Part shown: one piece after another, positions 7,530 through 28,383 of the stretch | How positions within the stretch are numbered: the stretch's first letter is position 1 | Layout: each line of letters starts with the position of its first letter | Assembly (NCBI RefSeq): GCF_001429285.1 | Contig: NZ_LMJJ01000043.1 | Coordinates: 439 to 64,438 of the forward strand | Direction of reading: 5' to 3' | DNA from: Ensifer sp. Root278 | GTDB taxonomy: Bacteria > Pseudomonadota > Alphaproteobacteria > Rhizobiales > Rhizobiaceae | Length of the DNA stretch: 64,000 bases | Translations under genes and position numbers: made by a program | The notes under the pieces: model-generated | What the model was told of the DNA's origin: nothing | The model's database searches: none | The model's input: the letters and a program-made list of their open reading frames with translations, nothing else

Positions 7530-7605
7530 CGATGAACCTCACACACGGAATTGAGCGGGGATGGGGCTGAGCAAGATGGAAGTCTCGATCAACAGAAATG
7601 ATTAT

Positions 7606-7639
7606 AAAGTCATTTCGACGATATAGTCAATATGAAAGT
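7606..7639. promoter_or_regulatory. Operator-like half-palindromes upstream of azoR
   Basis: AAAGTCATTTCGACGAT (7606-7622) and ATAGTCAATATGAAAGT (7623-7639) each match the perfect palindrome at 7793-7809 at 12 of 17 positions and are adjacent in the azoR leader. They are probable binding sites for the divergent TetR regulator. Confidence 0.45.
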
Positions 7640-7792: not shown

Positions 7793-7809
7793 ATAGTCAA
7801 AACGACTAT
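7793..7809. promoter_or_regulatory. Perfect palindromic operator before TetR gene
   Basis: ATAGTC-AAAAC-GACTAT is a perfect 6-bp inverted repeat with a 5-bp spacer, 43 bases before the TetR start. Position and form fit an autoregulatory TetR operator shared with azoR. Confidence 0.55.
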
Positions 7810-7851
7810 ATGCTCATAGCGAGCCACGGGATTTGCGGAGCAGGTTGACGA

Positions 7852-10422: not shown

Positions 10423-10538
10423 TAAGGAACATTCGGTAGGCGGGGACGATCCGGCCCGGTTCGAGTTCCACACCGGAAAAGATAGGAGATTCTATGCGAC
10501 TTTAGAGGTGCACAGAGATCGGCAAGATCCACCTGGGG

Positions 10539-11168: not shown

Positions 11169-11303
11169 CACACTTCCATTTCCTGCTGGATTGGACCGGT
11201 TGTTCGGGTCGCCTGGTTGCAAGCAATCCTAGCAGGTTAGCCCGGGTACAGACGGTTCGCCGCTTTGGCAACTGTGATCATCCCGGCGCCTTGCTCAACT
11301 AAT

Positions 11304-11321
11304 TGACTAACTCGTTAGTCA
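11304..11321. promoter_or_regulatory. Perfect 18-bp operator of the RND operon
   Basis: TGACTAAC-TC-GTTAGTCA is a perfect 8-bp inverted repeat. It overlaps a TTGACT hexamer (11303-11308) that can serve as -35 for the efflux operon, with a weak -10 around 11324-11331. Binding here would block the promoter. Confidence 0.7.
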
Positions 11322-11371
11322 GTGATACTAGCGCACCACCCTTTTGATTGCAAACCGCTGTGGAGAAAAAC

Positions 11372-12436: not shown

Positions 12437-12437
12437 G

Positions 12438-13535
12438 ATGGTTGCTTATCGTCCCCAAGTCTCGTTTTCACTCCTGGCAGCGCTGGCGATTCTTGCCGGC
12501 TGTAGTCAGGATGCCGGCGCAGGTGAGACCGCCAGGCCGCGGCCGGTCAAGTCCGTTGCGGTGAGTGCAGCGCACGTGCAGCTAGTGCGCCTCCCCGGGA
12601 TCGTCCAGGCCAGGGTTGAGACCGATCTTGCATTCCGAACCTTGGGACGCGTCGTGTCGCGCAAGGTAAATGTTGGCGACCTCGTGCGTGCCGGCGATGT
12701 CGTGGCTGAAATCGATCCGTTTGCTCTTCAGCTTGCGGTCCGCAGCGCCGAAGCCGATCTGCGCAACGCTGAAGCGCAGTTCGAGAATGCCTTGTTGACG
12801 CAGGACCGCAAGCGGAGGCTTGCCTCGACGAGCGCCGCGAGCACCGCGGATCTGGACCTCGCCGATCAGGCGCTGAAATCGGCCTGGGCGGGCGTCGGCA
12901 AGGCAAATGCCAGCCTGGAGAAGGTACGCGAGCAGCTTGGCTATGCTGTGTTGAAGGCCGAGTTCGATGGTGTTGTGACTGCGACCTGGGTCGAAGTCGG
13001 ACAGACGGTAACTGCCGGGCAGCCTGTCCTGAAGCTTGCGCGTCTTGATCAGCGCGACGTAGTCGTCGACGTTCCCGAAACGTATCTACGATCGTTGCGT
13101 CTGGGGGACCGAGCGGACATTGCCCTCCAACTCGATGACGCGCTGCAGACCTCCGGCGTCCTGCGCGAAATTGGCCCGCAGGCGGATGCCGGTACTCGTA
13201 CTCATCGGCTGAAAATCGCCATCGATGAGGCGCCGGAGGTCTTCCGGCTGGGATCGGTAGTGACCGCGGCACCAGCCGGCGTTCGGCAAGGGGCGGCGAT
13301 CGACGTACCGGCAACGGCCGTCGTCAAGAAGGACGGCGCCGACCGTGTCTGGGTGGTTGACCCGGAGACACACACCGTCTCGCTCAAAGCCGTGCGGCTC
13401 GACGGCTCCTCCACGGACATCCGTTCTGTCCAAGTCCTCTCCGGGCTCAAGGATGGCGAAGAGATCGTCGTCGCCGGCGTGAATGAACTTGCCGAGGGGC
13501 AGAGTGTGAGAACTGAACAGGATAATCGCCCGTGA
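12438..13535 (+). CDS. RND efflux periplasmic adaptor lipoprotein (second)
   Basis: 365 residues, GGGAGG nine bases before ATG. The lipobox LAGC is followed by the same adaptor fold as its neighbour: FRTLGRVVSRKVNVGDLVRA, a coiled hairpin, and VVVDVPETYLRSLRLGDRA. It is a diverged paralogue of the preceding gene; pumps served by two different adaptors are known for Mdt/Sme-like rhizobial systems. The stop overlaps the pump start (GTGA), showing translational coupling. Confidence 0.92.
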   Translation: MVAYRPQVSFSLLAALAILAGCSQDAGAGETARPRPVKSVAVSAAHVQLVRLPGIVQARVETDLAFRTLGRVVSRKVNVGDLVRAGDVVAEIDPFALQLAVRSAEADLRNAEAQFENALLTQDRKRRLASTSAASTADLDLADQALKSAWAGVGKANASLEKVREQLGYAVLKAEFDGVVTATWVEVGQTVTAGQPVLKLARLDQRDVVVDVPETYLRSLRLGDRADIALQLDDALQTSGVLREIGPQADAGTRTHRLKIAIDEAPEVFRLGSVVTAAPAGVRQGAAIDVPATAVVKKDGADRVWVVDPETHTVSLKAVRLDGSSTDIRSVQVLSGLKDGEEIVVAGVNELAEGQSVRTEQDNRP

Positions 13536-16500: not shown

Positions 16501-16582
16501 GGGCACGGCACTAACGCTCCTCTTCCTGCCGGCGCTCTATGTCGCCTGGTTCCGGATACCGCGTGAGATCGAGGAGGGCTGA
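13532..16582 (+). CDS. RND efflux pump inner-membrane permease (AcrB-like)
   Basis: 1016 residues starting at GTG 13532. Twelve membrane spans, with one following the N-terminus and the central group (about 335-540) containing GLLVDDAMIAVEMMVARLE, the conserved Asp pair of the proton relay. The second group ends with the MLTAAAATLALIP segment. Sequence character is that of the short HAE1-like efflux RND group, proton-driven and exporting drugs or metabolites from the periplasm. No outer-membrane factor is encoded beside it, so a TolC-like protein elsewhere must complete the channel. Confidence 0.94.
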   Translation: MNKFNLSDWALEHRSLVWYFMIIFAVAGAFAYLSLGREEDPSFTIKTMVIQAQWPGASAQEVTQQVTDRIEKKLQELNNLEHTRSITTAGQTIVFVDLLPDTNAQDVKPTWSRVRNLIDDIKHEFPQGVIGPLFDDQFGDVYGNIFALTSDGLSHRELRDFAEDARTQILKIADVGKVDIVGAQDEVIYLEFSTRKIAALGLNRADIISTLQAQNAVTQSGFIQTGPERVALRVGGRFISEDTLRGINLRVNDRFFPLTDVANITRGYVDPPTSLFRFKGKPAIGLAIGMKTGGNLLAFGEALEKTMAGIVQDLPVGVSVEQVSDQPKVVHEAVGGFTKALFEAVAIVLAISFISLGFRAGLVVAIAIPLVLAITFMVMLYSGISLQRISLGALIIALGLLVDDAMIAVEMMVARLEMGDSLRKAATYVYTSTAFPMLTGTLVTVAGFIPVAFNKSSAGEFTFTLFVVIAVSLVVSWIVAVLFTPLIGVTLLPKTMKKHAEHKGRFARAFSSMLQFCLRWRWMTILATVLLFAGSLAGLTLVPQQFFPSSDRPELIVDWNLPQNSSIAETSRQMAQFEREMLAGNPAVDHWSTYVGRGAPRFILSFDVQPADVSFGQTVIVAKELDARDKLKQEAEAYLQKTFPGTDAYVKLLEIGPPVGKPIQYRVSGEDLQTVRDLAQKLGSVIGAHPSLKNLAFNWNEPARVVKIDVLQDKARQLGVSSQDIAMALNTVVQGDAATQVRDDIYLVNVVGRASEKERGSIDTLLDLQLQSSSGQSVPLSSVATFRYELEQPTIWRRDRVPTITIKAGISGTTQPATIVKALADKVAAFEKTLPVGYSVAVGGAVEESAKSQGPIATVAPAMLLIMATLLMIQLQSFHRLFLVFSVAPLALIGVVAALFMSNAPLGFVALLGVLALVGILIRNSVILIVEIEELRAAGKSPWTAVVEATEHRMRPIMLTAAAATLALIPISHEIFWGPMAYAMMGGIVVGTALTLLFLPALYVAWFRIPREIEEG

Positions 16583-16583
16583 C

Positions 16584-17882
16584 ATGACCGGTTCAACGCC
16601 TCCCGACCGCCCGCGCAGCATTTGCGCTTTGCAATGGATCGGCCGCAAGCGGCCGATCCTCACGACACATCGAACAAAGCCTCGACAGGTGCTCCCCGCG
16701 CTAGTGATAGTGTCCGTCGTCATAACCGGCTGCGCGACCCGGGTGGAGAACGTCCTTCAGCCTCATCAGGTGGCAGCCAACGACGCCAGCCGGGTGAGCA
16801 TGCTGGTGGCAACGACGCGAAGGCCATCCGACGATCCCGGCCGCCTCTATTCGGGCGAGCGTGGAACGGCGATCTCGCTGAATAACCTCACCGTCTCCAT
16901 TCCTCCGGATCGAAACCGCAAGATCGGCGAGGTGCAGTGGCCCTCACGCGTTCCGCCGAATCCGGAAAAGGAGTTTGCAGTCCTTGAAGTCGGCAAGGTT
17001 GCGACGGAAGGGCAGGCTCTCGCATGGTTTCGCAAGAATCGGAACGCCAAGCGGCAGGTGCTCATCTTTGTTCATGGCTTTAACAACACTTATGCCGACG
17101 CCGTCTTTCGCTTCGCCCAGATCGTACACGACTCGGGCACCGATGCGGCACCTATACTCTTCGCCTGGCCATCGCGGGCTCGCGTTTTCGACTACCTCTA
17201 TGACAAGGAGAGTGCCAACTACTCGCGGCGAGCCTTGGAGGACCTGATCCTTCAGGCCACCCGAAGCCCCGATGTCGACGAAGTGACGATTCTCGCGCAT
17301 TCGATGGGGACCTGGCTCGCGGCGGAGGCACTGCGCGGTGTTGCCATGCGCGAAAAATCGATCCCGGCCAAAATCAAGAATGTCATCCTTGCATCGCCGG
17401 ACATCGACATCGATGTGTTTCGCCGGCAGTTTATCGAAATGGGACCAAAGCGGCCGCATTTTGCGATTCTGACATCCACACGTGACAAGGCGCTCGAGGT
17501 TTCGGGCTTTCTGTCGGGCGGAGTTGACCGCGTCGGAGGATCCGATCTCAGACCCTATGCCGCTGCGCTCGAGGAGTTGGGCGTGTCAGTCATCGACACA
17601 AGCGCCATTGCGTCAAACGACCCGCTTGGCCACAATGCCTTTGCTGACAGTCCCGAGATCGTGCGTCTGCTCGGCCGGCGTCTGGCCGGCCAATCGATTT
17701 CGGGCGGCGAGGAGACGTTCGCGGATCGCGTGGGAGTAGCCGCCGCCAATTTCGCCGGGTCGGCAGCCCGCGTGGCCGTTGCGGCTCCGGTATCGGTCAT
17801 CAGCGGCGATGCGCGCGAAGTCTTGAAACGCGAACTTTCTTCCTCGAGCGGGCAGATCGTGGATGGAAGGATCGCGTATTGA
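16584..17882 (+). CDS. Alpha/beta hydrolase lipoprotein (DUF900 family)
   Basis: 432 residues from ATG 16584, one base after the pump stop, with GAGGAGGGC upstream. A lipobox-like ITGCAT ends the signal (Cys about residue 50). The hydrolase core shows VLIFVHGFNNTYADAVFRFA (oxyanion region) and the nucleophile elbow TILAHSMGTWLAAEAL. DUF900 members are esterase-like proteins of unknown substrate. Being translationally linked to the efflux pump, it may act on the exported compound or the envelope, but that is inference. Confidence 0.85.
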   Translation: MTGSTPPDRPRSICALQWIGRKRPILTTHRTKPRQVLPALVIVSVVITGCATRVENVLQPHQVAANDASRVSMLVATTRRPSDDPGRLYSGERGTAISLNNLTVSIPPDRNRKIGEVQWPSRVPPNPEKEFAVLEVGKVATEGQALAWFRKNRNAKRQVLIFVHGFNNTYADAVFRFAQIVHDSGTDAAPILFAWPSRARVFDYLYDKESANYSRRALEDLILQATRSPDVDEVTILAHSMGTWLAAEALRGVAMREKSIPAKIKNVILASPDIDIDVFRRQFIEMGPKRPHFAILTSTRDKALEVSGFLSGGVDRVGGSDLRPYAAALEELGVSVIDTSAIASNDPLGHNAFADSPEIVRLLGRRLAGQSISGGEETFADRVGVAAANFAGSAARVAVAAPVSVISGDAREVLKRELSSSSGQIVDGRIAY

Positions 17883-17884
17883 CG

Positions 17885-17910
17885 ACAGGTCTGCCTGGCA
17901 GACCTGTTTT
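17885..17910 (+). terminator. Rho-independent terminator of the RND operon
   Basis: ACAGGTCTGC-CTG-GCAGACCTGT forms a perfect 10-bp stem and is followed by TTT, directly after the last gene of the operon. Confidence 0.75.
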
Positions 17911-18055
17911 CTGCCTAGCTGCCTCCATTCATGTTTGGCGCCCCTTAGCGCGCACCGTCGAGATCATCCAGTCGATCTGCGGCATAGAAGCCTGCAGAAA
18001 CTCGCTCCCAGCAGAAGGTGACGTCGATCTGCGACGCCGTTTCCGGCGGCGAGGA

Positions 18056-19120
18056 TCAAAACGAATACCCCACTTTGACGGCGGCGCTGACGAGATCGTT
18101 GTCCGTAAAATTTCCGAATGAACCCGACGCATCACCGAACTGGTGGTAGCTGATAGCGGTGGTTATTTTCATCCCGTCCTTCGTATAGATCGCCCCAAGC
18201 GTGGCGCCCCACAAACCGTCGGTTGCGTCGAGCGGCCCTTCAGCCGATACGTCGGTCGAGGGTTCATATGTCAGAGTTGTGAAACCCGACCATTGTTCAC
18301 TGAACATCTGTGCCACGCCGAGCGTGTAGGTCGTCGTGTCGTTGAAGTGGACGAGTGATCCCAAAGGGTAGCCCGGCGGATTGATCGTGTGTTCGCTCCA
18401 ATCGGCCCAGCGAACTGTCGCGAAGAGCAACGTGGAAAGGCTGATCGGCGCCTGGAGATGGACGTTGACCGATTGCGGGGTCTCGACATCCGTGGTCCCT
18501 TGATAGGCACCGGACGTGTCGAAATCGTAGTCGATCGCGGAATTGTACGTGACTGCGATCCGGACATGGCTTTCCGGGATTTCAAAGGCCGCCCCAACCA
18601 CGTAGCCCGCCGCCCAGGTGTCGTCAAAGGTGACGTTGCCAATACCGGCGGGCACGCCGCCTGCGAAAACTGAGATATCGGTGTCGCCACCCATACGTTG
18701 CAGTCTGGGTCCGCCGAAGACGCTGAAACGATCCGTGAGCTTGTAACGCAGCAAACCTGTGACTGCGATCGACTCGACTTTTCCCGACAGGCCGGACAGC
18801 GGCCCGCTATCGTACTCGACTCTGCGCCCATACGGATTGTCTACGATGACCGCTCCTGAGAATTGTTCGTTGATATCGGCCTTGAAGGCGCCATTGTAGA
18901 ATGGGACCGAGGGCGCCGTATCGCCGGAAGCAAACGGGGGCCCGACGGCAATGATTTGTCCCCCCACGTTCGGACTGCCAAAGCCGATCCCGAATTCGAC
19001 GTAGCGTCCCGTCTCGAAAAGGGCTTCATTCGGCTGCCCCAGGAGATCGAAGCCTCCTCCCATCGCCGGTGTGACCAAAAGACAGCTGAACAATCCGGTC
19101 GACAAATTAATAGCTTTCAT
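18056..19120 (-). CDS. FadL/OmpP1-type outer-membrane channel
   Basis: 354 residues from ATG 19120, with GGAGGGAG eight bases upstream; the frame continues upstream but without a start signal. Signal peptide of about 22 residues (ending TPAMGGG), then a beta-rich protein ending in aromatic VGYSF, as outer-membrane barrels do. Repeats such as ITTAISYHQFGDA support the FadL/TodX family, which takes up fatty acids or aromatic hydrocarbons. It is the last gene of the minus-strand catabolic operon, about 200 bases beyond the FAH gene, so uptake of the pathway substrate is the likely role. Confidence 0.85.
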   Translation of the reverse strand: MKAINLSTGLFSCLLVTPAMGGGFDLLGQPNEALFETGRYVEFGIGFGSPNVGGQIIAVGPPFASGDTAPSVPFYNGAFKADINEQFSGAVIVDNPYGRRVEYDSGPLSGLSGKVESIAVTGLLRYKLTDRFSVFGGPRLQRMGGDTDISVFAGGVPAGIGNVTFDDTWAAGYVVGAAFEIPESHVRIAVTYNSAIDYDFDTSGAYQGTTDVETPQSVNVHLQAPISLSTLLFATVRWADWSEHTINPPGYPLGSLVHFNDTTTYTLGVAQMFSEQWSGFTTLTYEPSTDVSAEGPLDATDGLWGATLGAIYTKDGMKITTAISYHQFGDASGSFGNFTDNDLVSAAVKVGYSF

Positions 19121-19323
19121 GCGGGTCTCCCTCCTCCGAGACGTGTCGCTTTTCCGCAAAGCCAAGGAAATGCGCATTGCTCTCTTTGCCTGCAGCCCTG
19201 CGTGTTGCCGGCTGCTCCAGGTCAAGGGGCTAGACCAGAAGGTGACACCCGAGCCCTTCACACCTCCGCCGATTAGACTGTGGTGCGGGCGGCCACGGCG
19301 TGCGCGTCCTGGTCTCGCCGAGA

Positions 19324-20280
19324 TCACGCGTCCACGATTGCGAGCAATTGCCCGCCAAAATCGACCGCGCTGTCATCGGTGCGCATTTCGGCACGCATTA
19401 TGTCGCCCGGTGCGAGGTAACGTGCGTGCGCGGTCGCCTCCTGGATGATCGCTTCCTTCCGCTCCGAATCCTTGAAGAGCTTGGTCGTCAGGATTTGGGC
19501 GAGGGGGGCGCTCGCTTGCAGGATCACGCCGCCCGGCGTCCCGGTCAGGACCAGATCGCCCGCAGCCAGGTCCATTAGAGACGCAATGTCGTTGAGGCAG
19601 GTTTCCGGGCGAAAGACGAAGTCCCGGGAATGGGCCGACTGCCGCAGTTCGTCGTTCAGCCAGAGACGGATCTCAATCCTGTCGAGCAGATCCGCCACCT
19701 CGTCCGCTTCGGGAATGACCAGCCACGGACCACAAGGGCAGAAGGTCCGGGCGCTTTTGCCGCGGAACCACTGCAAGAAGGCTTCACCGAACATGACGTC
19801 GCGGGCTGATATGTCGTTGCACAAGACGAGTCCGCCGATGAAATCGCCGAGGGTCTCTCGGGTGACGTGGTCGCCCGCAGTTAGTGGTCGCTTCAGGACA
19901 AGCCCAAGTTCCACTTCGTAGTCGAGCATCTGACATCCTGTCGGCCGGATGACGGGATCGAACGCTCCGGATAGCGAGGAGGCGGCCTTCATGAAGAGCA
20001 GGTTCTTCTGGCGTGACGCATGCCCCGATTGATCCGCGTGATCTGCATAATTCAGACCCTGGCAAACGATCTGCGCCGGCGCTGTGACGGGGCTCAGAAT
20101 GGTTGCCGAGTTGATCGGGAAACGTTCAGCGCCTGCCCGCGCCTTGAGCTCAGTGGGAGGAAGGCGCAGGATGTCGGCAGTCGAGACGAAGGTGCCTTCG
20201 AGGGGTGCGATCTCTTCTCCATCCAAAATTCCCCACAAGGGTTCTCCACCGATCGCAAATCGGGTCACTTTAACAACCAT
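19324..20280 (-). CDS. Fumarylacetoacetate hydrolase family protein
   Basis: 318 residues from ATG 20280 (AAGGAAA upstream). The FAH fold is marked by NYADHADQSGHASRQKNLLF, the metal-binding DYEVELGLVLKR, DFIGGLVLCNDISARDV and DLVLTGTPGGVI. These enzymes hydrolyse or decarboxylate the keto-acids made by ring cleavage of catechols (for example C-C bond hydrolysis or oxalocrotonate chemistry). Sitting beside two VOC proteins and an acyl-CoA synthetase, it probably processes a ring-cleavage product. The exact substrate is unknown. Confidence 0.92.
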   Translation of the reverse strand: MVVKVTRFAIGGEPLWGILDGEEIAPLEGTFVSTADILRLPPTELKARAGAERFPINSATILSPVTAPAQIVCQGLNYADHADQSGHASRQKNLLFMKAASSLSGAFDPVIRPTGCQMLDYEVELGLVLKRPLTAGDHVTRETLGDFIGGLVLCNDISARDVMFGEAFLQWFRGKSARTFCPCGPWLVIPEADEVADLLDRIEIRLWLNDELRQSAHSRDFVFRPETCLNDIASLMDLAAGDLVLTGTPGGVILQASAPLAQILTTKLFKDSERKEAIIQEATAHARYLAPGDIMRAEMRTDDSAVDFGGQLLAIVDA

Positions 20281-20358
20281 TTCATTTCCTTTTTTGAGGG
20301 GGCCGCTTGGAAAGCGGCTCGAATCTCCGCTCACAGCACTTTGAAGGTCGGCGCGGCG

Positions 20359-21036
20359 TTAGGCGCGGTCCTTGCCCTTGAGCTCCCCGTATCGCTCGCG
20401 ATAGTTCTCGATCGTGTCCATTGCCCCGCAGAATTCGACATTGTGCCAGTCGGGGTCGTAGAGATAGCAGGCCACGTTTCCGCCGGTCTCGCCGTCGCCC
20501 AAAGGCGGTTCGCTGTTGTGGCGGACTGGACCGTAGTTCAACTGGAATCCGTCGGCCTGCTGTTGCTTGGCAAAGGCCAGGACATCCTCCAGTTGGTTTC
20601 CTTTCACCTCGAGCGCGAAATGGAAGAAGCTCATGCCCGAAGGTACGGTAATCCTGCCTGAAGGATCGTATTCCTCGACGAGCACGAGGCATTCCTCGTG
20701 GTCAGTTGCACTCATGTAGCAGCAGCGAATGCGCCACCCTTCCTTGAACGGATGCGGCTCCAGCTCGCAGGTGCGGCTATGGATCATGCCGGCAACTTTC
20801 TCGTACCAGGCCCGGCTTCGCGCGATGTCGCGCACATAGATGGAGAGCTGTCCGATATGAGAAACGAGCGAAGGCTTGAAGACGCCGTAGTCCTCAGTCT
20901 TGTTGGAGAACCGCCGCTTCGTCAGCGTCGGCCACAACAGCACCATTTCGCGAAACCATTTCCGCTTCAGGAGGCCTGCGAAGCGTAGCTTGAATGGGGG
21001 CAGGACGTTCGGGGGAACGAATGCGGTATTGCTCAT
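20359..21036 (-). CDS. VOC family protein with extradiol-type metal triad (1)
   Basis: 225 residues. An N-terminal extension of about 55 residues precedes a glyoxalase/dioxygenase domain starting HIGQLSIYVRDIARSRAWYE. The three metal-ligand positions are present: His in that segment, His in MSFFHFALEVKG and Glu in DWHNVEFCG, so an iron-dependent ring-cleaving dioxygenase is plausible. It overlaps the preceding VOC gene by 4 bases (ATGA), and GAGGAG precedes its start. It is longer than single-domain VOC proteins (about 140) but shorter than classic two-domain extradiol enzymes (about 300). Confidence 0.85.
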   Translation of the reverse strand: MSNTAFVPPNVLPPFKLRFAGLLKRKWFREMVLLWPTLTKRRFSNKTEDYGVFKPSLVSHIGQLSIYVRDIARSRAWYEKVAGMIHSRTCELEPHPFKEGWRIRCCYMSATDHEECLVLVEEYDPSGRITVPSGMSFFHFALEVKGNQLEDVLAFAKQQQADGFQLNYGPVRHNSEPPLGDGETGGNVACYLYDPDWHNVEFCGAMDTIENYRERYGELKGKDRA

Positions 21037-21467
21037 CTGCTGGGCTCCTCAATGATCTCGATCCAGTGCCTGTCTGGGTCCTGGAGGCAAAAAGCACGCG
21101 ATACAGGGCGCGCGGAGGCGAGCATGCGCCCCTCGCGGATCGGTAAGTCCATGTCTCGTGCGCGGCGTCTGATCTCGTCGAATGCCTCTGCGTCCTTCAC
21201 GGCTAGCGTGAAGTGGAGCATGGAATTGTTGTCCATCTTCAGCTTGTGATGCTTCACCAGGCAGATGTCGTGATGGTGGAAGCCGAATGAGAAGAAATGC
21301 ATTTCCTGCTGCGACAAACGCATCGCGGCGCTGCTGTCGGGATGGTTGAGAGCGGAGAACTGCAGGTCGAAGACCTTGATATAGAAAGCCTTTGAGCGTT
21401 CCAGGTCGGTAACGTAGAAGACGTGGTGTTGAAGGTGGGTGACGAGGATTCGAGTTGGAGCGTTCAT
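21033..21467 (-). CDS. VOC family protein with extradiol-type metal triad (2)
   Basis: 144 residues from ATG 21467 (CAGGAAACC upstream). One glyoxalase/bleomycin-resistance/dioxygenase domain: LQHHVFYVTDLERSKAFY (His), MLHFTLAVKDAEAFDEI (His) and PDRHWIEIIE (Glu) give a complete 2-His-1-carboxylate set. Alone it would be half of a dioxygenase-type barrel, so it may dimerise or pair with the neighbouring VOC protein. Its start may be coupled to the tiny ORF at 21464-21544 by an ATGA overlap. Confidence 0.85.
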   Translation of the reverse strand: MNAPTRILVTHLQHHVFYVTDLERSKAFYIKVFDLQFSALNHPDSSAAMRLSQQEMHFFSFGFHHHDICLVKHHKLKMDNNSMLHFTLAVKDAEAFDEIRRRARDMDLPIREGRMLASARPVSRAFCLQDPDRHWIEIIEEPSR

Positions 21468-21544
21468 GACTGGTTTCCTGACTGCTGGTTTGCCCATGAG
21501 AGTGCTGGCGCCCCGATCTCGGAAAGGGCAAAATTGATCGCCAT
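21464..21544 (-). CDS. Tiny ORF between acyl-CoA synthetase and VOC gene
   Basis: 26 codons beginning MAINFALSEIGAP, with AAGGAAGCC before ATG and a TGA that overlaps the start of the VOC gene. The upstream sequence repeats that of the VOC start (GGAA-CCAGTC-ATG), so it may be a duplicated or truncated gene start rather than a working peptide. Confidence 0.3.
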   Translation of the reverse strand: MAINFALSEIGAPALSWANQQSGNQS

Positions 21545-21573
21545 GACTGGCTTCCTTTTCTTCTCGCGAGTGT

Positions 21574-23499
21574 TCAGAGGAATTGCGCCTTAAAGGCGTA
21601 GTGGCCCAGTTTTTCGCGCAATAGGCGTGGATCGCCCTCTGCTGTAATTCTTGCAAGCAGCCCGAGCCGGGCGTCTTGAATGACCGAAAGCGATTCGAGC
21701 TTCACGCCGGACGACGCCGCCTCCTGAAGGACGACATCCTCGATCTCCAGCATCGACAACGCTGGCTTGAAGAGCTTGCCGACGGGTGTGACGGGGAGCG
21801 TGGGCAGAATCCGGACGGATTTGGGGTGCGCAGCGCGCTCGGGAATACGGCCGACGGCATGGGCAAGCAGATCCGCCTCCGTTGCGGTCGTCCCGGGCTT
21901 CAATTGGACGTAGAGCACCGGCAGTTCTCCCGCGCGCTCATCGGGTCTTCCCACCGCTGCGGCAAGCTGTACCGCCGGGTGATCTTGCACGGCATTTTCG
22001 ATCAGCTTCGGATCGATGTTATGCCCGCCCCGGATAATGAGCTCCTTCTTGCGACCGGTCAGCCAGAAGTAGCCGTCAGTGTCCTGGCGGGCGAGATCGC
22101 CGGTGTTCAGCCAGCGCTCGCCGTCAATCTCAAGCCAGAGGCCCTTGTTGTGTTCGGCATTGATGTAACCGGCAAAGACATTCGGCCCGCGGATCGCGAG
22201 CACGCCGACCTCGTCCGTCCCGGCGAACCCGGTGAAGCCCGAATCGTCGAGTCTGACCACTGCCATTTGCTGGTAGGGGAGGCGTAGGCCGATCGAACCG
22301 ACACGCCGCTCGCCTTCCGGCGGGTTGACGCTGGAAACACAGGCGCCTTCCGTCAGGCCGTAGGCCTCCAGAATGCGGATTCCAATCGTCTCTTCGAAAG
22401 TGCGGAACAGTTCCACGGGCATCGGAGCCGCGCCGCAAAAACCGTAGCCGACGCTCGAAATGTCGCGGCCGCCGACCGGCACCTGCATCAGTGCCGAGTA
22501 TACAGTCGGAACGCCCGAGAAGGCCACGACACGATAGTGTTCGACGATCTCCCAAAAGGACGGAATAACTCCCTCTCCGCGATAGCCGTGCGGCGTGCCC
22601 ATGACGACATGCCCGCCTTGCGACCACGGGATGAGGCCTGTCACCAACTGTCCATTGACGTGGAAGAGCGGCAGGCCGCAGAAGATCGCCTTGCCCGGTG
22701 CGAACACACTCCCGATAAAGGCTTGGGTGGACCAGGCGTCGAACACCTCCGACAAATGGGTGCGCGCGGCGATCTTGGGCAGTCCGGTTGTGCCGCCCGT
22801 GCAGAAGTATGAAGAGATATCTCCGGGATTGGGCATCTCGAAGGTCAACCCGTCGCCGCGTTCCCCGGCAATTTCCTGACGCAGGCTGAGAACGGGGATA
22901 GAAAGGCCGCCGACATCCCGAGCCTGTGAGCGTACCTCCGTGGCTTCCTCGGTGGTGCCGCGGAAATACGGTTCAAAACTGACGGTCAGAATTCCCTGCA
23001 AATCCGGTACATTCGCCGCGGCCTTGATCGCCTTCTGCCAGATGTCTGTTCCCGGAAAGGGGGCCAGTGTGACGAGCCATTTTGCTTTCCCGGCAATGAG
23101 GAGCTCGCAGATCTGTCCCGATTCAAGCAGCGGATTGATCGCGAAGGTGATGCCCGCCGCCTCGCCACCCCAGATCACGAAATGCGCTTCGGGCAGATTG
23201 GGCAGCACGAAGGCCACGACGTCGTCGCGACCGATGCCCAGCCGCCGCAGGGCATTGGCTGTCCTCGTGATGTCAGCGAGGAGCTCGGCGTGCGTCCAGA
23301 CGACGGGATCACGGAAGTTTTCAGAGCGCAGAAAGAAGGACAGGGCAAGCTGATCCGGCGCGACAGCGGCGCCGTGCGCAAGCATCTCATAGGTGCTTGC
23401 CGGGAGGTTACGCTCCGGCAAAGGGATTTGCTCGAATGCCTCAACATCGGGCAATGTGGCAATGGGGCGACTGACGCCGCCATGGGTTTTTGCGAGCAT
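21574..23499 (-). CDS. AMP-dependent acyl-CoA synthetase
   Basis: 641 residues from ATG 23499, preceded by GGGAGGAAG. Adenylate-forming signature: SSYFCTGGTTGLPKIAART (P-loop motif), ILEAYGLTEGACVSSVNPPE, LNTGDLARQDTDGYFWLTGR and KKELIIRGGHNIDP, with the catalytic Lys in TPVGKLFKPAL. Length and the long linker fit the acyl-CoA synthetases of about 630 residues often found in degradation clusters. It activates a carboxylic acid to its CoA thioester in the cytoplasm. In this operon the acid may be an aromatic acid or a ring-cleavage fragment. Confidence 0.92.
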   Translation of the reverse strand: MLAKTHGGVSRPIATLPDVEAFEQIPLPERNLPASTYEMLAHGAAVAPDQLALSFFLRSENFRDPVVWTHAELLADITRTANALRRLGIGRDDVVAFVLPNLPEAHFVIWGGEAAGITFAINPLLESGQICELLIAGKAKWLVTLAPFPGTDIWQKAIKAAANVPDLQGILTVSFEPYFRGTTEEATEVRSQARDVGGLSIPVLSLRQEIAGERGDGLTFEMPNPGDISSYFCTGGTTGLPKIAARTHLSEVFDAWSTQAFIGSVFAPGKAIFCGLPLFHVNGQLVTGLIPWSQGGHVVMGTPHGYRGEGVIPSFWEIVEHYRVVAFSGVPTVYSALMQVPVGGRDISSVGYGFCGAAPMPVELFRTFEETIGIRILEAYGLTEGACVSSVNPPEGERRVGSIGLRLPYQQMAVVRLDDSGFTGFAGTDEVGVLAIRGPNVFAGYINAEHNKGLWLEIDGERWLNTGDLARQDTDGYFWLTGRKKELIIRGGHNIDPKLIENAVQDHPAVQLAAAVGRPDERAGELPVLYVQLKPGTTATEADLLAHAVGRIPERAAHPKSVRILPTLPVTPVGKLFKPALSMLEIEDVVLQEAASSGVKLESLSVIQDARLGLLARITAEGDPRLLREKLGHYAFKAQFL

Positions 23500-23531
23500 A
23501 GTGATCTTCCTCCCTGTAGGTCTGCGCCGGC

Positions 23532-23699
23532 TCACTTGGACACCGGCGGCAACTCCCAATTAGCGATGCGACGAGCTTCCTCCGGCTCGATCTCAAGTGC
23601 CTGGAGCACGAACTCCGCAGCGTCGGAGCCGCCATCCGCCCAGGTCCTATGGCCCTGCAGCACCAATGGCACTGCAGCGAGACTGGTGCCGGCAATCAT
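23532..23699 (-). CDS. Small protein within the catabolic operon
   Basis: 55 residues from ATG 23699 with AAGG seven bases upstream, starting 8 bases after the TetR stop and ending 32 bases before the acyl-CoA synthetase. Composition is balanced (EFVLQALEIEPEEARRIANW near the C-terminus), with no cysteine or clear membrane span. No family was recognised. Tight spacing in the operon is the main argument that it is real. Confidence 0.5.
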   Translation of the reverse strand: MIAGTSLAAVPLVLQGHRTWADGGSDAAEFVLQALEIEPEEARRIANWELPPVSK

Positions 23700-23707
23700 C
23701 GCCAGCC

Positions 23708-24349
23708 TTAAGAAGGACCCTTCCGGAGGGCCGCAACACTGAAGGAAATCAGGACTTCGGGCGTGATGAGCGGGTGCCTGAGATTGAAATTCTTTATCGC
23801 TTTGGGCTCCCAGAGTGCCGCAGTTGACGCGCAAAGGCATTCAGCGGCCCGAACACTGTCCTGTTGTCGAAATTCCTGTGCATCAACACCCTGTTCGACA
23901 AGTTCAGCGACGATGCCCTTAACGCGTTGTGCGTGTGCCTCGAAAGCGGGCCAGCGCTCATCATCGGCGATCGTGAGCAGCTCGAATATTTTGTCCTCAT
24001 CCCGCATGAGAGCAAGGGCCCCTCCATGCAGCCCCAGAATGAACTCTCGGAGCGTTTCGGCACTCGTAAGGGTTCCGGAGCCGAGTTGGATGACGGGAAA
24101 ATTGTCTTCGAGCACCCGCGTAACAAGCCTGTCATATATCGCCACTTTGGAAGAGAAAAAACGATAGACGTTTGCTGGCGACATCTTGAGGTAGCTGGCG
24201 ATGTCGCACACGTTCGTTTTCCTGGAACCATAGAGAGCGCACAATTTCTCTGCCGCGCTTAGAATACGGGCAACATTCGTTTCCCGGTTCTCCTGCCGGC
24301 TTGTTCGCCGGTGGGGCATGCCCGAGCGGCAGTTATCACTCTCAAGCAT
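23708..24349 (-). CDS. TetR/AcrR regulator of the catabolic operon
   Basis: 213 residues. Signature ILSAAEKLCALYGSRKTNVC then DIASYLKMSPANVYRFFSSK. The ATG lies inside the end of the Fe-S subunit gene (ATGCTTGA, 8-base overlap), so the regulator is translated within the operon. The best operator candidate is the perfect palindrome TGACTAATTAGTCA upstream of the first gene, about 4 kb away. It probably acts as an inducer-released repressor of the whole unit; the ligand is likely the pathway substrate or its CoA ester. Confidence 0.88.
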   Translation of the reverse strand: MLESDNCRSGMPHRRTSRQENRETNVARILSAAEKLCALYGSRKTNVCDIASYLKMSPANVYRFFSSKVAIYDRLVTRVLEDNFPVIQLGSGTLTSAETLREFILGLHGGALALMRDEDKIFELLTIADDERWPAFEAHAQRVKGIVAELVEQGVDAQEFRQQDSVRAAECLCASTAALWEPKAIKNFNLRHPLITPEVLISFSVAALRKGPS

Positions 24350-25217
24350 CGGCGCCCCCCCGCGAATCTGCGGCGCCGGGACGGGCCAACCTCAGTTCGC
24401 CCAGATAGACGCTCTCGGACAGGACGCAGTCGCGCCAGACGCTGCCATGGGCATGGGACACTTCGACACGATATGTGCTTCCGTCACCCCGCAAACCGTC
24501 GAAGCCAAAATCGCCGAAGCTGTTCGTCGTGGCTCTCGCGAGACACTTGCCTGCCTGGGATAGGGTTACCTCCGCCCCTTCGAGACATTCCACCGCCCCG
24601 GCGATGTCGGCGCTGACGCTGCCGCCTATGAAGCATGTCTCCCACCGTTCCAGACCCCGGTACCAGATGCGGGGTTTGGTTCCGAGCTCGGGCTTTTGCA
24701 CCTTGAGCCCCTCGGTGGCCGCCTTTAGCTCCATAGCGGCGTCATCTAGTTTCACCGCCTCGAAGACGTCCGTCGGACAACTCTGCTGGCAGCGAGGCCG
24801 CTGCCAGCCCTGATCGAGCAGGTGGGCATCAAAGATCCAGGTCTGCGGCACCTGCTGCTCCTCGTTCCAGACGATTGCCCGGTACGGGCACGAGCCGAGA
24901 ATGTCCTTGCGGCCCTTAGCCTTCTCTGGATCAATGATAACGATACCGTCGTCGCGTTTGCGGATGGCGTCGCCCGCATATCGCATGCAGGGCGCGTCAT
25001 CGCAGTGGTTGCACATCACTGGCAAATAGGTGGTCTCCACCATCGGCGCACTGCCCTGTACGCGGCGCAGGATGCGGATCGGACTCTCTCCCACTGCAGC
25101 AGCCGGCGCCGCGTAGCCCGGAAAGTCGTTGCCGACATGTTCGTCCCGGTCCGCGATCACGCAATTGTGGCAGTTCTCGCAGCGGCCGACGTTGATGATC
25201 AGATTCCATTTGCTCAA
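24342..25217 (-). CDS. Transhydroxylase-like Fe-S small subunit
   Basis: 291 residues. The N-terminal two thirds is a ferredoxin-type electron-transfer subunit with Cys groups CENCHNC, CNHCDDAPC, CPYRAI and CQQSCPTDVFE, enough for about three [4Fe-4S] clusters. The last about 90 residues (GAVECLEGAEVTLSQAG onward) form a beta-rich, carboxypeptidase-regulatory/CnaB-like domain. A small subunit with such a C-terminal barrel is the known plan of pyrogallol-phloroglucinol transhydroxylase. It overlaps the large-subunit gene by 4 bases (ATGA). No Tat signal is visible, so the complex is probably cytoplasmic. Confidence 0.82.
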   Translation of the reverse strand: MSKWNLIINVGRCENCHNCVIADRDEHVGNDFPGYAAPAAAVGESPIRILRRVQGSAPMVETTYLPVMCNHCDDAPCMRYAGDAIRKRDDGIVIIDPEKAKGRKDILGSCPYRAIVWNEEQQVPQTWIFDAHLLDQGWQRPRCQQSCPTDVFEAVKLDDAAMELKAATEGLKVQKPELGTKPRIWYRGLERWETCFIGGSVSADIAGAVECLEGAEVTLSQAGKCLARATTNSFGDFGFDGLRGDGSTYRVEVSHAHGSVWRDCVLSESVYLGELRLARPGAADSRGGADA

Positions 25218-28200
25218 GACTTCCTCCTACGCCGCGCAGCCATCTTGAAGGCGTCCGCGTTCTGCCACTTCTCGATTTGCACAAGGCAGGAATTGGGAGC
25301 CATGCTGCTGGTTCCGCGGGTCTGCGACCGGTCCGGGGTAAGGATGTTCAAGCAGCCGCCGACCTCTACGGTCTCTCCTTCAACTTCGATAAGCTGGAAC
25401 TCGGCGCTGGCCTCATAGGACTTGACGACGCCCGGGGTCACCAGGGCCGAAATGTCGGCGGCGCAGATCACGGCTCCGCGATCGTTGAAGATTTTCACCA
25501 GGTCACGATGACCAATGCCGCGGGTGGCGGCATCGGCCGGGTTGATCCGCAGCAACCAGAAGCGATGGCCTGCAACCAAGGCACGATGGTCCTCCACCTG
25601 ATTAACCGCGCTGTTCTTGCCATCCATGCTGGTGTGGAAGCTGTAGCGGCTATGTGTGGCGATCATCTGCAGCGGATAGCGCTCCGTCAGCTCGGTGGTG
25701 CTCCGCCCTTCCCAGGAGGGAATGTAGTGATTGATCGGTGGCCGATCCGGATTGTCCGCCGTGTTCCGCTTGAGGATCTCGGGCACGAATTCGAGTTTGC
25801 CGCTCGGCGTTTGCAGGCCCATGCCGAACTCTTCGGCATACTGGGATGGCATCGGAAGTGGTTCCGGCAGATCCTTGCGCCTGCCCTCGGCGAACCAGCG
25901 CATGTCGACGGGCTGGCGCAGTTCCGGCTTTTCGGGCGGCACGACGTAGTAACCTTTGCGACAGAATTTCTTCCAGGAAATTTCGCCGGGCAGATCTGAC
26001 GAATCGAACACCCGCTTGACCCAGTCGAGTTCGCTGCAGCCTTCGCTGAAGACGGCGCCCAGGCCCAGCCGGGTCAGGATGGCTGTGAATATGTCGTAGT
26101 CGGACTTCGACTCGCCCAAGGGCTCGATGCACTTATGCTGGAGGGTGATGACGCGATGGTTGACCACGTTGACGCCGTGATGGGCGTAGCCTCCGGAATT
26201 CGCCCATTCGCCGATGTCCCAGCGCTCCAGCGAAGTGCAGGCCGGCAGGATGACATCGGCAAACTGGGCCTCGCCCTCCATCCAGATGGACTGGTTCACC
26301 ACAAACTCGATGCTCTCGTGCCGATAGGCGTCCACCCAGCGTCCCGATCGAGTTACGGTGCTGAGGGACGATCCGCCGTAGCGGTAGATCATGTGTATCG
26401 GCGAGTAGCCCGGCATAGGATAGCTGAAAGGCGCAAACTGGGCCTCTTGGGCCATGCCGTCCCAGAGATAGCCGGTGGCGTGACCGGTGATGATCGCGTC
26501 GGGCAGTTGCTGGCGCGGCACCATCTGCTTGACGGGATTCATCGTCAGGATGTGGGGCATGCGCTGATAATTGTTGACCGCATTGCCGGTCCACGCCAGG
26601 TCGCCGGAAATCCCTCCATCCGCATAGCCCGGAAAATAGAAATGCAGGTCGTGCGGGACCCCGATCTGGAGACCGCCGAAATTGACGCCCGGCTTGCCCC
26701 AGCCCTGCATGGCCATCATCATGATCATGCAGCGAGCCCACTGGGCTCCGGTCGCGCCGCGGCCTGCGCCGCCGAACCCCGTGCCGGTCATGCCAACAGC
26801 TAGATAGACCTTCCTGCCGCCCCACTTGCGGGCCAGGGCGCGCACGTCCCTGGCAGGTATGCCGGTCTCGGCCTCCTGCCATTCAGGAGTCTTCGGAACG
26901 CCATCGGTTTCGCCCAGCAGGTACGCCTTCCATTCGTCGAAGCCGGTGGTGCGGGTCGCGACGTATTCCTCGTCATAGAGGCGTTCCGTGACCCAAACAT
27001 ACATGATGGCCTGGGCCAGGGCCGCGTCGGTCTGCGGCCGGACGGGAAACCAGCGTCCGCCCAGCAACTGGGCTGTCGGATTGCAATGCGGGTCGATATG
27101 CACGAACTCAATGCCGAGTTCCTTGGCCCATAGACGACGTGTCGTGCCCTCAAACCCCGCATAGGCTCCATTGGTGCTTTCGGGATCGCAGGACCAGAAG
27201 ACGATCATCTCGGCTTCCTTCAGGCAATCCTCGACCCCGCCATAGCCCGCAGGCACGCCGACCCGCATTGAATTGCCGAAATGATGCATTGCGCCCCAGT
27301 ACCAGCCTTCCCAACTGTCCGGATTGGCCGCGACCCGGGTGAATCCGTTCAAGTTGGCGAAGCGCATCAGCGAGCTCAGGTAATAGCCCACATTGCCCCA
27401 CTGGTGGTGGGACGACATCGGGAACGTGATGGAACCGGGCCCGTGGACGCGCTTCTGCCGATTGATCTCCGTGGCAACGATGTCCAGCGCCTCATCCCAA
27501 CTGATCCGCACGTAGCCGGATTTGCCGCGGTTCTGGGGATTGCGTTCGCCATTGGGATCGAAATCCACCCGCTTCATCGGGTAGAGGATACGCTTGTCCG
27601 AATAGACGAGGGATTTCATCGTCAAGGCGTGCGGCGCTACCAGCGCCCGCCGAGGCGGACTGAATTTGCGGCCGCGAGCCTCGATCACCCAGGTGGCCGG
27701 GTCGGTATCGTCGAACTCGATCGGCGTAACCCGCAGAATGCGTCCATCCTTGACATAGACGAACAGGGGACCGCCGTTGGTGCAGGTGGTGAAGCGATGG
27801 CTGCCATCGGGCATGGGCATCCCCATGGCCACGCCGGCGGTCTCGCTCATGTTGAGAGTCTGCGTGAACCAGACAATCAGTTCATCGGGCCCGGTGGTCA
27901 CCACCTTAAAGTTCTTGGCCGCGTGGATGATCTCACCCTGATCGCGATTGGGTAGCAAGAGTTTCAAGGCGGTCGCCACGTCCTTGAAGGACATGACCAC
28001 TTCGCCCTCGGCCGCCGTGCCCGGACGGGAGCGGAATTTGCCGCCTCGGATTTCCACGATGCGGCCGATGCTGCCGTCCTGCAGGCCGATCCACGCGGTG
28101 ACGTCGTGCTGTTTCAGCCGCTCCGCAAATGCGGGAGCCCGGGACGCCGTGTGGTTGAGCACCTTCGGCAGGGCAAAGAGGATAGTTCGGAGAACCTGCC

Positions 28201-28228
28201 GGTTCACTCTGGATCTTATGGCTACCAT
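25214..28228 (-). CDS. Molybdopterin oxidoreductase, transhydroxylase-like large subunit with SCP2-like fusion
   Basis: 1004 residues from ATG 28228; upstream in-frame codons to 28348 lack a good start. About residues 1-130 look like a sterol-carrier-protein-2 domain (IGRIVEIRGGKFRSRPG, VVMSFKDVATALKLLLP). Then comes the DMSO-reductase-family fold, beginning FTTCTNGGPLFVYVKDGRIL, without the usual CxxC Fe-S motif, as in pyrogallol transhydroxylase. Mo-bis-MGD binding regions follow (VFWSCDPESTNG, NQSIWMEGEAQFADVILPAC). The expected reaction is hydroxyl transfer or hydroxylation on a polyphenol. It is the first main gene of the catabolic operon; its substrate is unproven. Confidence 0.85.
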   Translation of the reverse strand: MVAIRSRVNRQVLRTILFALPKVLNHTASRAPAFAERLKQHDVTAWIGLQDGSIGRIVEIRGGKFRSRPGTAAEGEVVMSFKDVATALKLLLPNRDQGEIIHAAKNFKVVTTGPDELIVWFTQTLNMSETAGVAMGMPMPDGSHRFTTCTNGGPLFVYVKDGRILRVTPIEFDDTDPATWVIEARGRKFSPPRRALVAPHALTMKSLVYSDKRILYPMKRVDFDPNGERNPQNRGKSGYVRISWDEALDIVATEINRQKRVHGPGSITFPMSSHHQWGNVGYYLSSLMRFANLNGFTRVAANPDSWEGWYWGAMHHFGNSMRVGVPAGYGGVEDCLKEAEMIVFWSCDPESTNGAYAGFEGTTRRLWAKELGIEFVHIDPHCNPTAQLLGGRWFPVRPQTDAALAQAIMYVWVTERLYDEEYVATRTTGFDEWKAYLLGETDGVPKTPEWQEAETGIPARDVRALARKWGGRKVYLAVGMTGTGFGGAGRGATGAQWARCMIMMMAMQGWGKPGVNFGGLQIGVPHDLHFYFPGYADGGISGDLAWTGNAVNNYQRMPHILTMNPVKQMVPRQQLPDAIITGHATGYLWDGMAQEAQFAPFSYPMPGYSPIHMIYRYGGSSLSTVTRSGRWVDAYRHESIEFVVNQSIWMEGEAQFADVILPACTSLERWDIGEWANSGGYAHHGVNVVNHRVITLQHKCIEPLGESKSDYDIFTAILTRLGLGAVFSEGCSELDWVKRVFDSSDLPGEISWKKFCRKGYYVVPPEKPELRQPVDMRWFAEGRRKDLPEPLPMPSQYAEEFGMGLQTPSGKLEFVPEILKRNTADNPDRPPINHYIPSWEGRSTTELTERYPLQMIATHSRYSFHTSMDGKNSAVNQVEDHRALVAGHRFWLLRINPADAATRGIGHRDLVKIFNDRGAVICAADISALVTPGVVKSYEASAEFQLIEVEGETVEVGGCLNILTPDRSQTRGTSSMAPNSCLVQIEKWQNADAFKMAARRRRKS

Positions 28229-28317
28229 ATCGATGCGGTCCGCCAGTCGAAATGTTCGGTTTCGACGGCATGGAAAAACGGCCTGATCGCGACATCGCGC
28301 GAGGCTTGCACGTCCAT
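28222..28317 (-). CDS. Short leader ORF coupled to the Mo-enzyme gene
   Basis: 31 codons starting MDVQASRDVAIRPFFHAVE, with the best Shine-Dalgarno of the operon (GGAGGAGAG) before its ATG. Its TAG stop overlaps the ATG of the large-subunit gene (ATGGTAG). It could be a leader peptide for translational coupling, or the original N-terminus now cut off by a frameshift. No family was recognised. Confidence 0.4.
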   Translation of the reverse strand: MDVQASRDVAIRPFFHAVETEHFDWRTASIW

Positions 28318-28353
28318 TGATCGCTCTCCTCCAACTCCCATTCCTCAATATTG

Positions 28354-28383
28354 ACTATAAAATCACAATGACTAATTAGTCAA
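28354..28383 (-). promoter_or_regulatory. Promoter with overlapping TetR-type operator
   Basis: On the minus strand, TTGACT (28383-28378) and TATAGT (28359-28354) are spaced 18 bases: a near-consensus housekeeping promoter for the catabolic operon. The perfect palindrome TGACTAATTAGTCA (28369-28382) covers the -35 and part of the spacer, a classic repressor position. Confidence 0.65.

What the first reader, a model, noticed from the sequence alone, without database searches (positions are those of the whole stretch)
18056..28383. Operon for an aerobic-type polyphenol pathway built round a transhydroxylase-like molybdenum enzyme
One minus-strand unit combines a transhydroxylase-like Mo large subunit, Fe-S small subunit with C-terminal beta-domain, TetR, acyl-CoA synthetase, two VOC proteins with 2-His-1-Glu triads, FAH hydrolase and FadL channel. 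Classic pyrogallol transhydroxylase works in strict anaerobes; here it sits with ring-cleavage and FAH genes, which fit oxygen-using catabolism. I infer uptake (FadL), hydroxyl transfer or hydroxylation (Mo), extradiol cleavage (VOC), C-C hydrolysis (FAH) and CoA activation. I cannot say from memory whether this combination has been described.
Basis: partly seen in the sequence, partly recalled or inferred. Interest (0 to 1): 0.75.

Follow-up and report, generated by a model that had tools for sequence, protein, structure and literature searches.

The report
Lipid-binding molybdenum hydroxylase with ring-cleavage genes
A root-nodule-type bacterium carries a gene unit in which a molybdenum enzyme, related to one known from strict anaerobes but fused to a probable fat-binding domain and lacking the ligands for one iron-sulphur cluster, probably adds a hydroxyl group to greasy plant phenols before other enzymes of the unit open the ring.

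Summary
The unit is real: eight minus-strand genes behind one conserved promoter-operator. The large subunit (L) is a close relative of pyrogallol transhydroxylase (E 1e-278; Mo-ligand Ser and active-site His, Asp, Tyr kept).

Correction: VOCa has Gln, not His, at the first metal position in 120 of 120 sequences aligned. VOCb and VOCa adjoin each other in Rhizobiaceae and stand where Burkholderia has a two-domain extradiol-type dioxygenase. In two loci a FAD aromatic hydroxylase stands where the Mo genes would be; Pseudomonas loci have both.

Best reading: catabolism of hydrophobic resorcinol/phloroglucinol-type phenols by Mo hydroxylation, extradiol cleavage, FAH hydrolysis and CoA activation. 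Substrate unproven; all evidence is comparative. New variant of a known kind.

The parts
28351..28383 (-). promoter-operator: 33-bp dyad TTGACTA...TATAGTCAA overlapping a -35 (TTGACT) and -10 (TATAGT)
   Evidence: promoter-like match, alone not above chance; same site upstream of L in relatives; 8 distinct sequences, window included, with the exact 20-letter pattern
25214..28228 (-). L, Mo large subunit of transhydroxylase type, about 1004 aa (mechanical ORF to 28348)
27794..28228 (-). SCP2-like N-terminal domain of L (ORF residues 41-185)
   Evidence: predicted fold; weak PF02036 matches in 3 of 45 and 5 of 40 relatives, not in the window protein itself
24342..25217 (-). S, Fe-S small subunit with C-terminal beta-domain; ligands of one [4Fe-4S] cluster replaced
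23708..24349 (-). TetR regulator
21574..23499 (-). ACS, acyl-CoA synthetase (NF005714 subfamily)
21033..21467 (-). VOCb, one-module VOC protein, 144 aa, His/His/Glu ligand positions plus a His-His pair (read by eye)
20359..21036 (-). VOCa, one-module VOC protein, 225 aa, Gln/His/Glu
19324..20280 (-). FAH-family hydrolase
18056..19120 (-). FadL/TodX-type outer-membrane channel
   Evidence: start seen
7598..7630 (+). second, weaker copy of the operator (3 mismatches), upstream of the flavodoxin-like reductase gene 6867-7529; membership of the same regulon is inferred

Best explanation
The unit is a catabolic operon for hydrophobic resorcinol- or phloroglucinol-type phenols (most likely alkyl-chain phenolic lipids; flavonoid/stilbenoid rings are the next candidate). 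FadL brings the compound through the outer membrane; the SCP2 domain of L binds its greasy part; the bis-MGD Mo site of L adds a ring hydroxyl without O2 (oxygen from water or from a hydroxylated co-substrate), electrons if any leaving through the two remaining clusters of S. The new vicinal diol is opened by an extradiol-type dioxygenase formed by VOCb, with VOCa as partner; FAH hydrolyses the resulting 1,3-dicarbonyl C-C bond; ACS makes the released acid a CoA thioester for beta-oxidation. TetR represses from the dyad over the promoter. Shown (sequence or prediction): gene content, homologies, SCP2 fold, Cys replacement, conserved operator, gene association and exchange. Inferred: every catalytic step, the substrate class, repression.
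Against: No enzyme here was assayed. VOCa lacks a His ligand; VOCb has Cys where Tyr stands in two-domain extradiol enzymes (reading); the curated hits of the two-domain protein are below their cut-offs. Pseudomonas loci L023 and L057 hold both the Mo genes and a FAD hydroxylase, so the two may act at different steps. The lost cluster weakens an electron-export role of S. FadL is not found in L025, L100 and L106. Nothing shows an alkyl chain. In PGTL the net reaction is hydroxyl transfer, not hydroxylation (recalled).
Confidence: 0.5

Rival explanations
1. Flavonoid (isoflavone, flavanone) or stilbenoid A-ring degradation: L-S does the C8-type hydroxylation that IfcA/FdeE do with FAD, VOC proteins open the A ring, FAH and ACS process the fragments.
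For: Many close relatives belong to plant-associated genera (names; habit recalled). FAD hydroxylase plus glyoxalase-type ring cleavage is the published isoflavone route, and ifc genes occur in rhizobia (PMC11069340). The Agrobacterium version lies near a lignostilbene dioxygenase-like gene. A flavonoid A ring is a resorcinol or phloroglucinol.
Against: The ifc genes described in section 15 include cupins and an alpha/beta hydrolase; FAH and ACS are not mentioned there, though the full gene table (Fig. 2A) was not held. Relatives also occur in genera of marine and hydrocarbon habitats (names; habitats recalled). SCP2 and a fatty-acyl-type ligase suggest a chain.
Confidence: 0.2
2. L-S is a true transhydroxylase: it moves a hydroxyl between phenols with no net redox change, and the Fe-S subunit is structural or gates activation.
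For: Closest solved relative is PGTL, and the active-site His, Asp, Tyr and Ser are kept. S has lost ligands of one cluster in 70 of 77 relatives, as expected if long-range electron transfer is not needed.
Against: Arg153 and Trp354 of PGTL are Tyr and Phe here. Exchange with a FAD monooxygenase points to net hydroxylation.
Confidence: 0.25
3. The unit detoxifies quinones/hydroquinones rather than feeding growth: VOCa-VOCb open hydroquinones, reductases recycle quinones, efflux and TetR genes nearby complete the response.
For: VOCb-VOCa sit with an NADPH oxidoreductase and two MarR genes in Arthrobacter citreus; a VOCa paralogue sits with an FMN reductase in G777; a flavodoxin-like reductase gene in the window has an operator-like site; RND efflux genes lie next to the unit.
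Against: FAH and ACS are not needed for detoxification and are conserved with the unit.
Confidence: 0.15

Closest known systems
Pyrogallol-phloroglucinol transhydroxylase (PGTL/PGTS, PDB 4v4c)
   Same: Same two-subunit family, same Mo-ligand Ser and active-site His/Asp/Tyr, same C-terminal beta-domain of S
   Different: The PGTL match begins after the SCP2-like domain; PGTS has Cys at 23, 126 and 129 where window S has Asp, Trp, Asp; PGTL Arg153 and Trp354 are Tyr and Phe. No homologue of our ring-cleavage references near the 21 most distant relatives tested
Resorcinol hydroxylase RhLS of Azoarcus anaerobius (known from passages of PMC10100899)
   Same: Named there as the same RhL/PgtL family, Ser ligand, hydroxylation of a resorcinol ring
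Isoflavone (ifc) and naringenin (fde) A-ring pathways (PMC11069340 sections 15-19; PMC11303751 passages)
   Same: Logic of ring hydroxylation followed by glyoxalase-fold ring cleavage, in plant-associated bacteria
   Different: Hydroxylase there is a FAD monooxygenase; later steps described use cupins, not FAH plus ACS
Alkylsulfatases SdsA1/Pisa1 with C-terminal SCP2-like domain; UbiJ
   Same: SCP2 fold used to hold a hydrophobic substrate beside an enzyme (fold match; role recalled)
   Different: Different catalytic domains; here SCP2 is N-terminal on a Mo enzyme

Membership tests
Transhydroxylase (PgtL/RhL) family | PF21423 + PF00384 + PF01568 architecture | tested here: met
   all above cut-off; each matched in 45 of 45 members of A1
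Transhydroxylase (PgtL/RhL) family | Ser Mo ligand and active-site His, Asp, Tyr | tested here: met
   Ser345, His314, Asp344, Tyr575 align with PGTL residues; their roles are recalled
Transhydroxylase (PgtL/RhL) family | groups with PGTL apart from other Ser-ligand enzymes | tested here: met
   SH-aLRT 100 for 50 rows including PGTL against 9 outgroup rows (with two wrong outgroup frames replaced); PGTL and outgroup branches are long
Transhydroxylase (PgtL/RhL) family | small subunit with 12 Cys for three [4Fe-4S] clusters, as in PGTS | tested here: not met
   Cys23, 126, 129 replaced by Asp, Trp, Asp; assignment of Cys to clusters is inferred from the ferredoxin pattern. A trait of PGTS and its clade, not of the wider family (70 of 77 lack Cys126/129)
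Transhydroxylase (PgtL/RhL) family | hydroxyl transfer or ring hydroxylation activity | not testable with these tools
   needs assay
SCP2 superfamily | SCP2 fold | tested here: met
SCP2 superfamily | PF02036 sequence match | tested here: inconclusive
   none for the window domain; 5 of 40 relatives, best E 0.0023, while an unrelated family reached 0.0038 in one member
SCP2 superfamily | lipid binding | not testable with these tools
   needs binding assay
Type I extradiol dioxygenase (VOCb) | 2-His-1-Glu plus catalytic His | tested here: inconclusive
   ligand positions and the His-His pair kept in 11 of 11 close relatives aligned and in the distant L110 (by eye); Tyr position is Cys; fold not modelled
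Type I extradiol dioxygenase (VOCa) | 2-His-1-Glu | tested here: not met
   Gln at the first ligand position in 120 of 120 (the window protein and 119 of the 120 listed of 207 found); Arg in the distant L110 protein
ifc/fde flavonoid cluster | FAD A-ring hydroxylase gene in the cluster | tested here: not met
   no such gene among the eight genes; the rest of the genome was not searched for it
ifc/fde flavonoid cluster | cupin IfcD homologues | not tested
   IfcD sequence not available

The most novel reading that the evidence does not exclude
A branch of molybdenum hydroxylases spread over many proteobacteria carries its own lipid-carrier (SCP2) domain, has shed one Fe-S cluster, and supplies an O2-free ring hydroxylation to an otherwise O2-dependent ring-cleavage pathway for greasy plant phenols, with ring opening in rhizobia by a split, two-protein VOC dioxygenase; it is interchangeable in evolution with a FAD monooxygenase.
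Probability: 0.33. Interest if true: 0.78.

Novelty: new variant of a known kind. Interest (0 to 1): 0.62.

Why it matters
Ring hydroxylation in aerobes is textbook work of flavin or iron monooxygenases that spend O2 and NAD(P)H (general knowledge). A Mo enzyme doing that step without O2, beside an O2-using ring opener, would save reductant and let cells prepare the ring at low oxygen, as in nodules and roots. The SCP2 fusion gives a concrete, testable substrate class, and the single Cys/Trp-Asp change in S gives a natural experiment on what the Fe-S clusters of the transhydroxylase do (that this is open is recalled).

Tried and rejected
DMSO/TMAO-reductase function as named by source databases: rejected, L is far closer to PGTL (E 1e-278 against 2e-69 for the best DMSO reductase). 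Classic 2-His-1-Glu for both VOC proteins: rejected for VOCa. VOCb-VOCa fusion protein P0238: looked at, judged a frameshifted read and left out of the count. PDB sequence searches with the N-terminal domain gave nothing. The full-length L model (pLDDT 74.5, poor round the active site) was used no further.

Papers: searches (10 of 10 listed; 8 of 8; 20 of 407) listed nothing that I recognised as a bacterial alkylresorcinol or sorgoleone degradation cluster of this kind. Searches (7 of 7; 6 of 6; 8 of 8; 20 of 46; 20 of 222; 1 of 1) listed no paper recognisable as being on this operon or on an SCP2-Mo fusion. Only listings were seen, apart from the four papers named in the report, and the library lacks most subscription papers, so this is not proof of absence.

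Genome surveys: VOCa in 1 of 385 genomes of the class, 8 of 394 of the family, 1 of 397 of the order, own genome included each time. L at E<=1e-90 in 1 of 398 genomes of the phylum, own included (only few candidates per genome were scored), so the family is thinly spread.

Error found on checking: in the tree two of nine outgroup rows (own_L001, own_L002) were wrong reading frames. One search repeats it with the right frames: the 50-row group (100), the 8-row clade of PGTL (99) and the 15-row clade of the window (100) stand; only the deep branching order inside the family changed. The change count was made on the tree; the 8-row clade is the same in both.

Direction of the Cys change: one change fits either direction, so 'loss' is an inference from related Fe-S proteins.

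Dropped rows: the context count used 59 loci, those with an L ORF over 900 aa and at least 6 kb and 3 kb of flank, of the 80 kept of 582. L024, the one miss in 26, lacks S too and may be decayed. In the lowest band FAH alone was found in 2 of 21 and ACS alone in 1 of 21. The Cys count used 77 of 80 (L024, L033, L049 dropped); in it L043 and L076 also lack the first Cys motif, four loci have Ser at Cys16 and ten lack Cys145.
Full report
What is there. Eight minus-strand genes span 18056-28348: L (Mo large subunit), S (Fe-S small subunit), TetR, ACS (acyl-CoA synthetase), VOCb, VOCa, FAH and a FadL-type channel, identified with Pfam and NCBIfam. Several ORF starts are mechanical; likely starts, from inspection and the annotated homologues, are given under parts. 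A DUF900 hydrolase gene and an RND efflux gene lie on the other strand next to FadL. Nearest named kin of L are Ensifer sp. IC3342 and Rhizobium mongolense (92-93%), so the host is a member of Rhizobiaceae or close to it.

L and S belong to the pyrogallol transhydroxylase family. L matches 4v4c_A over residues 185-1030 at E 1.1e-278, the next PDB family being DMSO reductase at 2.3e-69; S matches 4v4c_B at 1.2e-66. PGTL His144, Asp174, Ser175 (Mo ligand) and Tyr404 align with His314, Asp344, Ser345, Tyr575; Arg153 and Trp354 stand against Tyr323 and Phe525 (residue roles recalled). A tree of 59 rows puts L and PGTL in one 50-row group apart from DmsA, TorA, BisC and six MopB proteins of the own genome (SH-aLRT 100). 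A first tree had two outgroup rows in wrong frames; the groups used here are the same in both. Outgroup and PGTL branches are long, so the root and the deep order are unsure.

The small subunit has lost a cluster's ligands. Against PGTS, window S keeps Cys13, 16, 19, 68, 71, 76, 109, 145, 149 (and 209) but has Asp, Trp, Asp at 23, 126, 129. In ferredoxin-type pairing, 126, 129, 145 and 23 would bind one cluster (inferred), so one cluster has lost three of four ligands. Among 77 relatives, Trp/Asp stands at 126/129 in 70 and Cys/Cys in 7; Cys23 is kept in 13. The seven Cys/Cys loci (L054, L063, L067, L070, L074, L075, L087: Desulfobacula, Desulfamplus, Desulfobacterales, Sporomusa and three other metagenome bins) are exactly the rows that group with PGTL (8 rows, SH-aLRT 99), and one change explains the pattern on 49 rows. 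That these are anaerobes is recalled from their names.

The genes around L. I scanned named genomes with an alignment of 45 sequences: 582 matched stretches encode a relative, the best 80 were kept. Of 59 with enough flank, a ring-cleavage gene plus FAH lies within 6.5 kb of L in 25 of 26 with 75% or more identity to L, 8 of 12 at 62-75%, and 0 of 21 below 62%; S is found beside L in 57 of 59. The search knew only relatives of our own reference proteins, so other ring-cleavage genes would be missed. In Burkholderia, Paraburkholderia and Pseudomonas the ring-cleavage gene is a two-domain protein with the extradiol residues (by eye; best curated hits HpaD, catechol 2,3-dioxygenase and biphenyl-diol dioxygenase, all below cut-off; best solved relative 3b59 at 1.3e-11). 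OmpW stands before L in Burkholderia-type loci. In Rhizobiaceae VOCb and VOCa take the place of the two-domain protein. Hydrogenophaga-, Pelomonas- and Pseudomaricurvus-type loci (L029, L037, L040) have the dioxygenase and FAH but no ACS.

VOCa and VOCb are a pair. VOCa is a small family (207 proteins at E<=1e-3); in the window protein plus 119 of the 120 listed, Gln63 and His139 are invariant and Glu201 stands in 119 of 120. VOCb keeps its His, His-His, His, Glu positions in 11 of 11 close relatives and in the distant Arthrobacter citreus protein. The two genes adjoin in 5 of 5 plasmid records with a match, including Agrobacterium larrymoorei and Arthrobacter citreus, in whose records no L was found. 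In Rhizobiaceae 8 of 394 genomes, own included, have VOCa; VOCb lies beside it in 8 of 8, and 7 of 8 have L. An exception is a second, more distant VOCa gene of G777 (54%), beside which no VOCb was found. In the same genome L-S and the FAH-VOCa-VOCb-ACS block lie on opposite strands yet together.

Exchange of the hydroxylase. A. larrymoorei (L109) and G590 (L102) carry ACS, FAH, an OYE reductase, VOCb and VOCa with a divergent FAD aromatic hydroxylase; the two hydroxylases are 60% identical and match the 3-(3-hydroxyphenyl)propionate hydroxylase subfamily NF004829 above its cut-off. G590 has no L at E<=1e-90, and the A. larrymoorei plasmid record has no L hit (its other replicons were not searched). 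Against a simple swap, Pseudomonas L023 and L057 have L and a relative of this FAD enzyme (52% and 45%, the second cut by the end of the locus, about 8-9 kb away) in one region, and weaker relatives (25-37%) lie in L039, L065 and L104. I read this as the Mo enzyme working in a ring-hydroxylation setting.

Regulation. A 33-bp dyad, TTGACTA....GTCATT.TGA...TATAGTCAA, covers a -35/-10 pair at 28351-28383. The promoter match alone is not above chance (2 found, 3.1 expected). The dyad stands upstream of L in relatives: 8 distinct sequences, window included, have the exact 20-letter core once repeats of one genome are set aside, while L024, L100 and L105 have looser versions; none was found in L102 and L109 within 5 mismatches. 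The pattern was drawn from these sequences, so its match in the window is by construction; a second window copy with 3 mismatches at 7598-7630, before a flavodoxin-like reductase gene and with a TetR gene on its other side, is not (0.00 matches expected). Binding by the operon's TetR is inferred; TetR is missing or only partly matched in L100, L105, L106 and L107.

Mechanism. I favour uptake by FadL, holding of the greasy substrate by SCP2, O2-free hydroxylation at Mo, extradiol-type cleavage by VOCb with VOCa, C-C hydrolysis by FAH, and CoA activation by ACS. If an alkyl chain sits next to the cleaved bond, FAH hydrolysis would release a fatty acid, which would explain the fatty-acyl-type ligase; this is inference. 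A published pathway with the same first two moves, but a FAD hydroxylase, degrades isoflavones in Variovorax, and its genes occur in rhizobia (PMC11069340, abstract and sections 15-19 read); naringenin C8 hydroxylation by FdeE is similar (PMC11303751, passages). PMC10100899 (passages) groups PgtL with resorcinol hydroxylase RhL, which hydroxylates resorcinol in anaerobic respiration; PMC7028382 (passages) sets gut catechol dehydroxylases apart from the transhydroxylase. I could not obtain RhL, so whether the SCP2 fusion is already present in it is unknown.

Verdict. The VOCa claim is corrected. The SCP2 fusion, the cluster change, the paired VOC proteins, the hydroxylase exchange and the operator were added here. 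Function remains comparative inference.

Noticed in passing
window 6867-8460: Flavodoxin-like (azoreductase/quinone reductase type) gene 6867-7529 and divergent TetR gene 7852-8460 with a copy of the operon's operator between them.
   Followed up: partly
window 11348-17882: RND efflux adaptor and pump genes and a DUF900 hydrolase adjoin the unit; efflux and alpha/beta hydrolase genes also stand beside it in Ensifer canadensis, and a DUF900 gene sits near a second VOCa gene in G777 (L101).
   Followed up: partly
L110 (Arthrobacter citreus plasmid) and L101 (G777): VOCa-type genes sit beside NADPH/FMN reductases and, in L110, MarR genes, suggesting a hydroquinone-quinone role outside the Mo operon.
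   Followed up: partly
L108 (G766) 11387-15870: The L gene is in two pieces: the N-terminal 153 residues and the last 850 are about 1.5 kb apart, as if interrupted near the end of the SCP2 domain.
   Followed up: no
L023 (Pseudomonas sp. BN417) 10001-22754: moaA, a SulP-like anion permease (below the family cut-off; molybdate carrier possible) and a FAD hydroxylase lie near the Mo genes.
   Followed up: no
L109 (Agrobacterium larrymoorei) 17338-24675: Lignostilbene dioxygenase-like, aldehyde dehydrogenase, two-domain extradiol-type VOC and a second hydroxylase gene next to the VOCa-VOCb cluster: looks like a stilbenoid pathway.
   Followed up: partly
L024 (Ensifer sp. IC3342): L matches only to residue 899 and no S, FAH, ACS or VOC gene is found nearby: probably a decayed copy.
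   Followed up: no
L049, L051, L053, L055, L059, L061, L066, L072, L078: Nine of 78 aligned L sequences (Xenophilus, Burkholderia, Paraburkholderia, Caballeronia, Trinickia) have Ile instead of the active-site Asp174; the five of them in the tree form one branch, and those with enough flank have no ring-cleavage gene of our kind nearby.
   Followed up: partly
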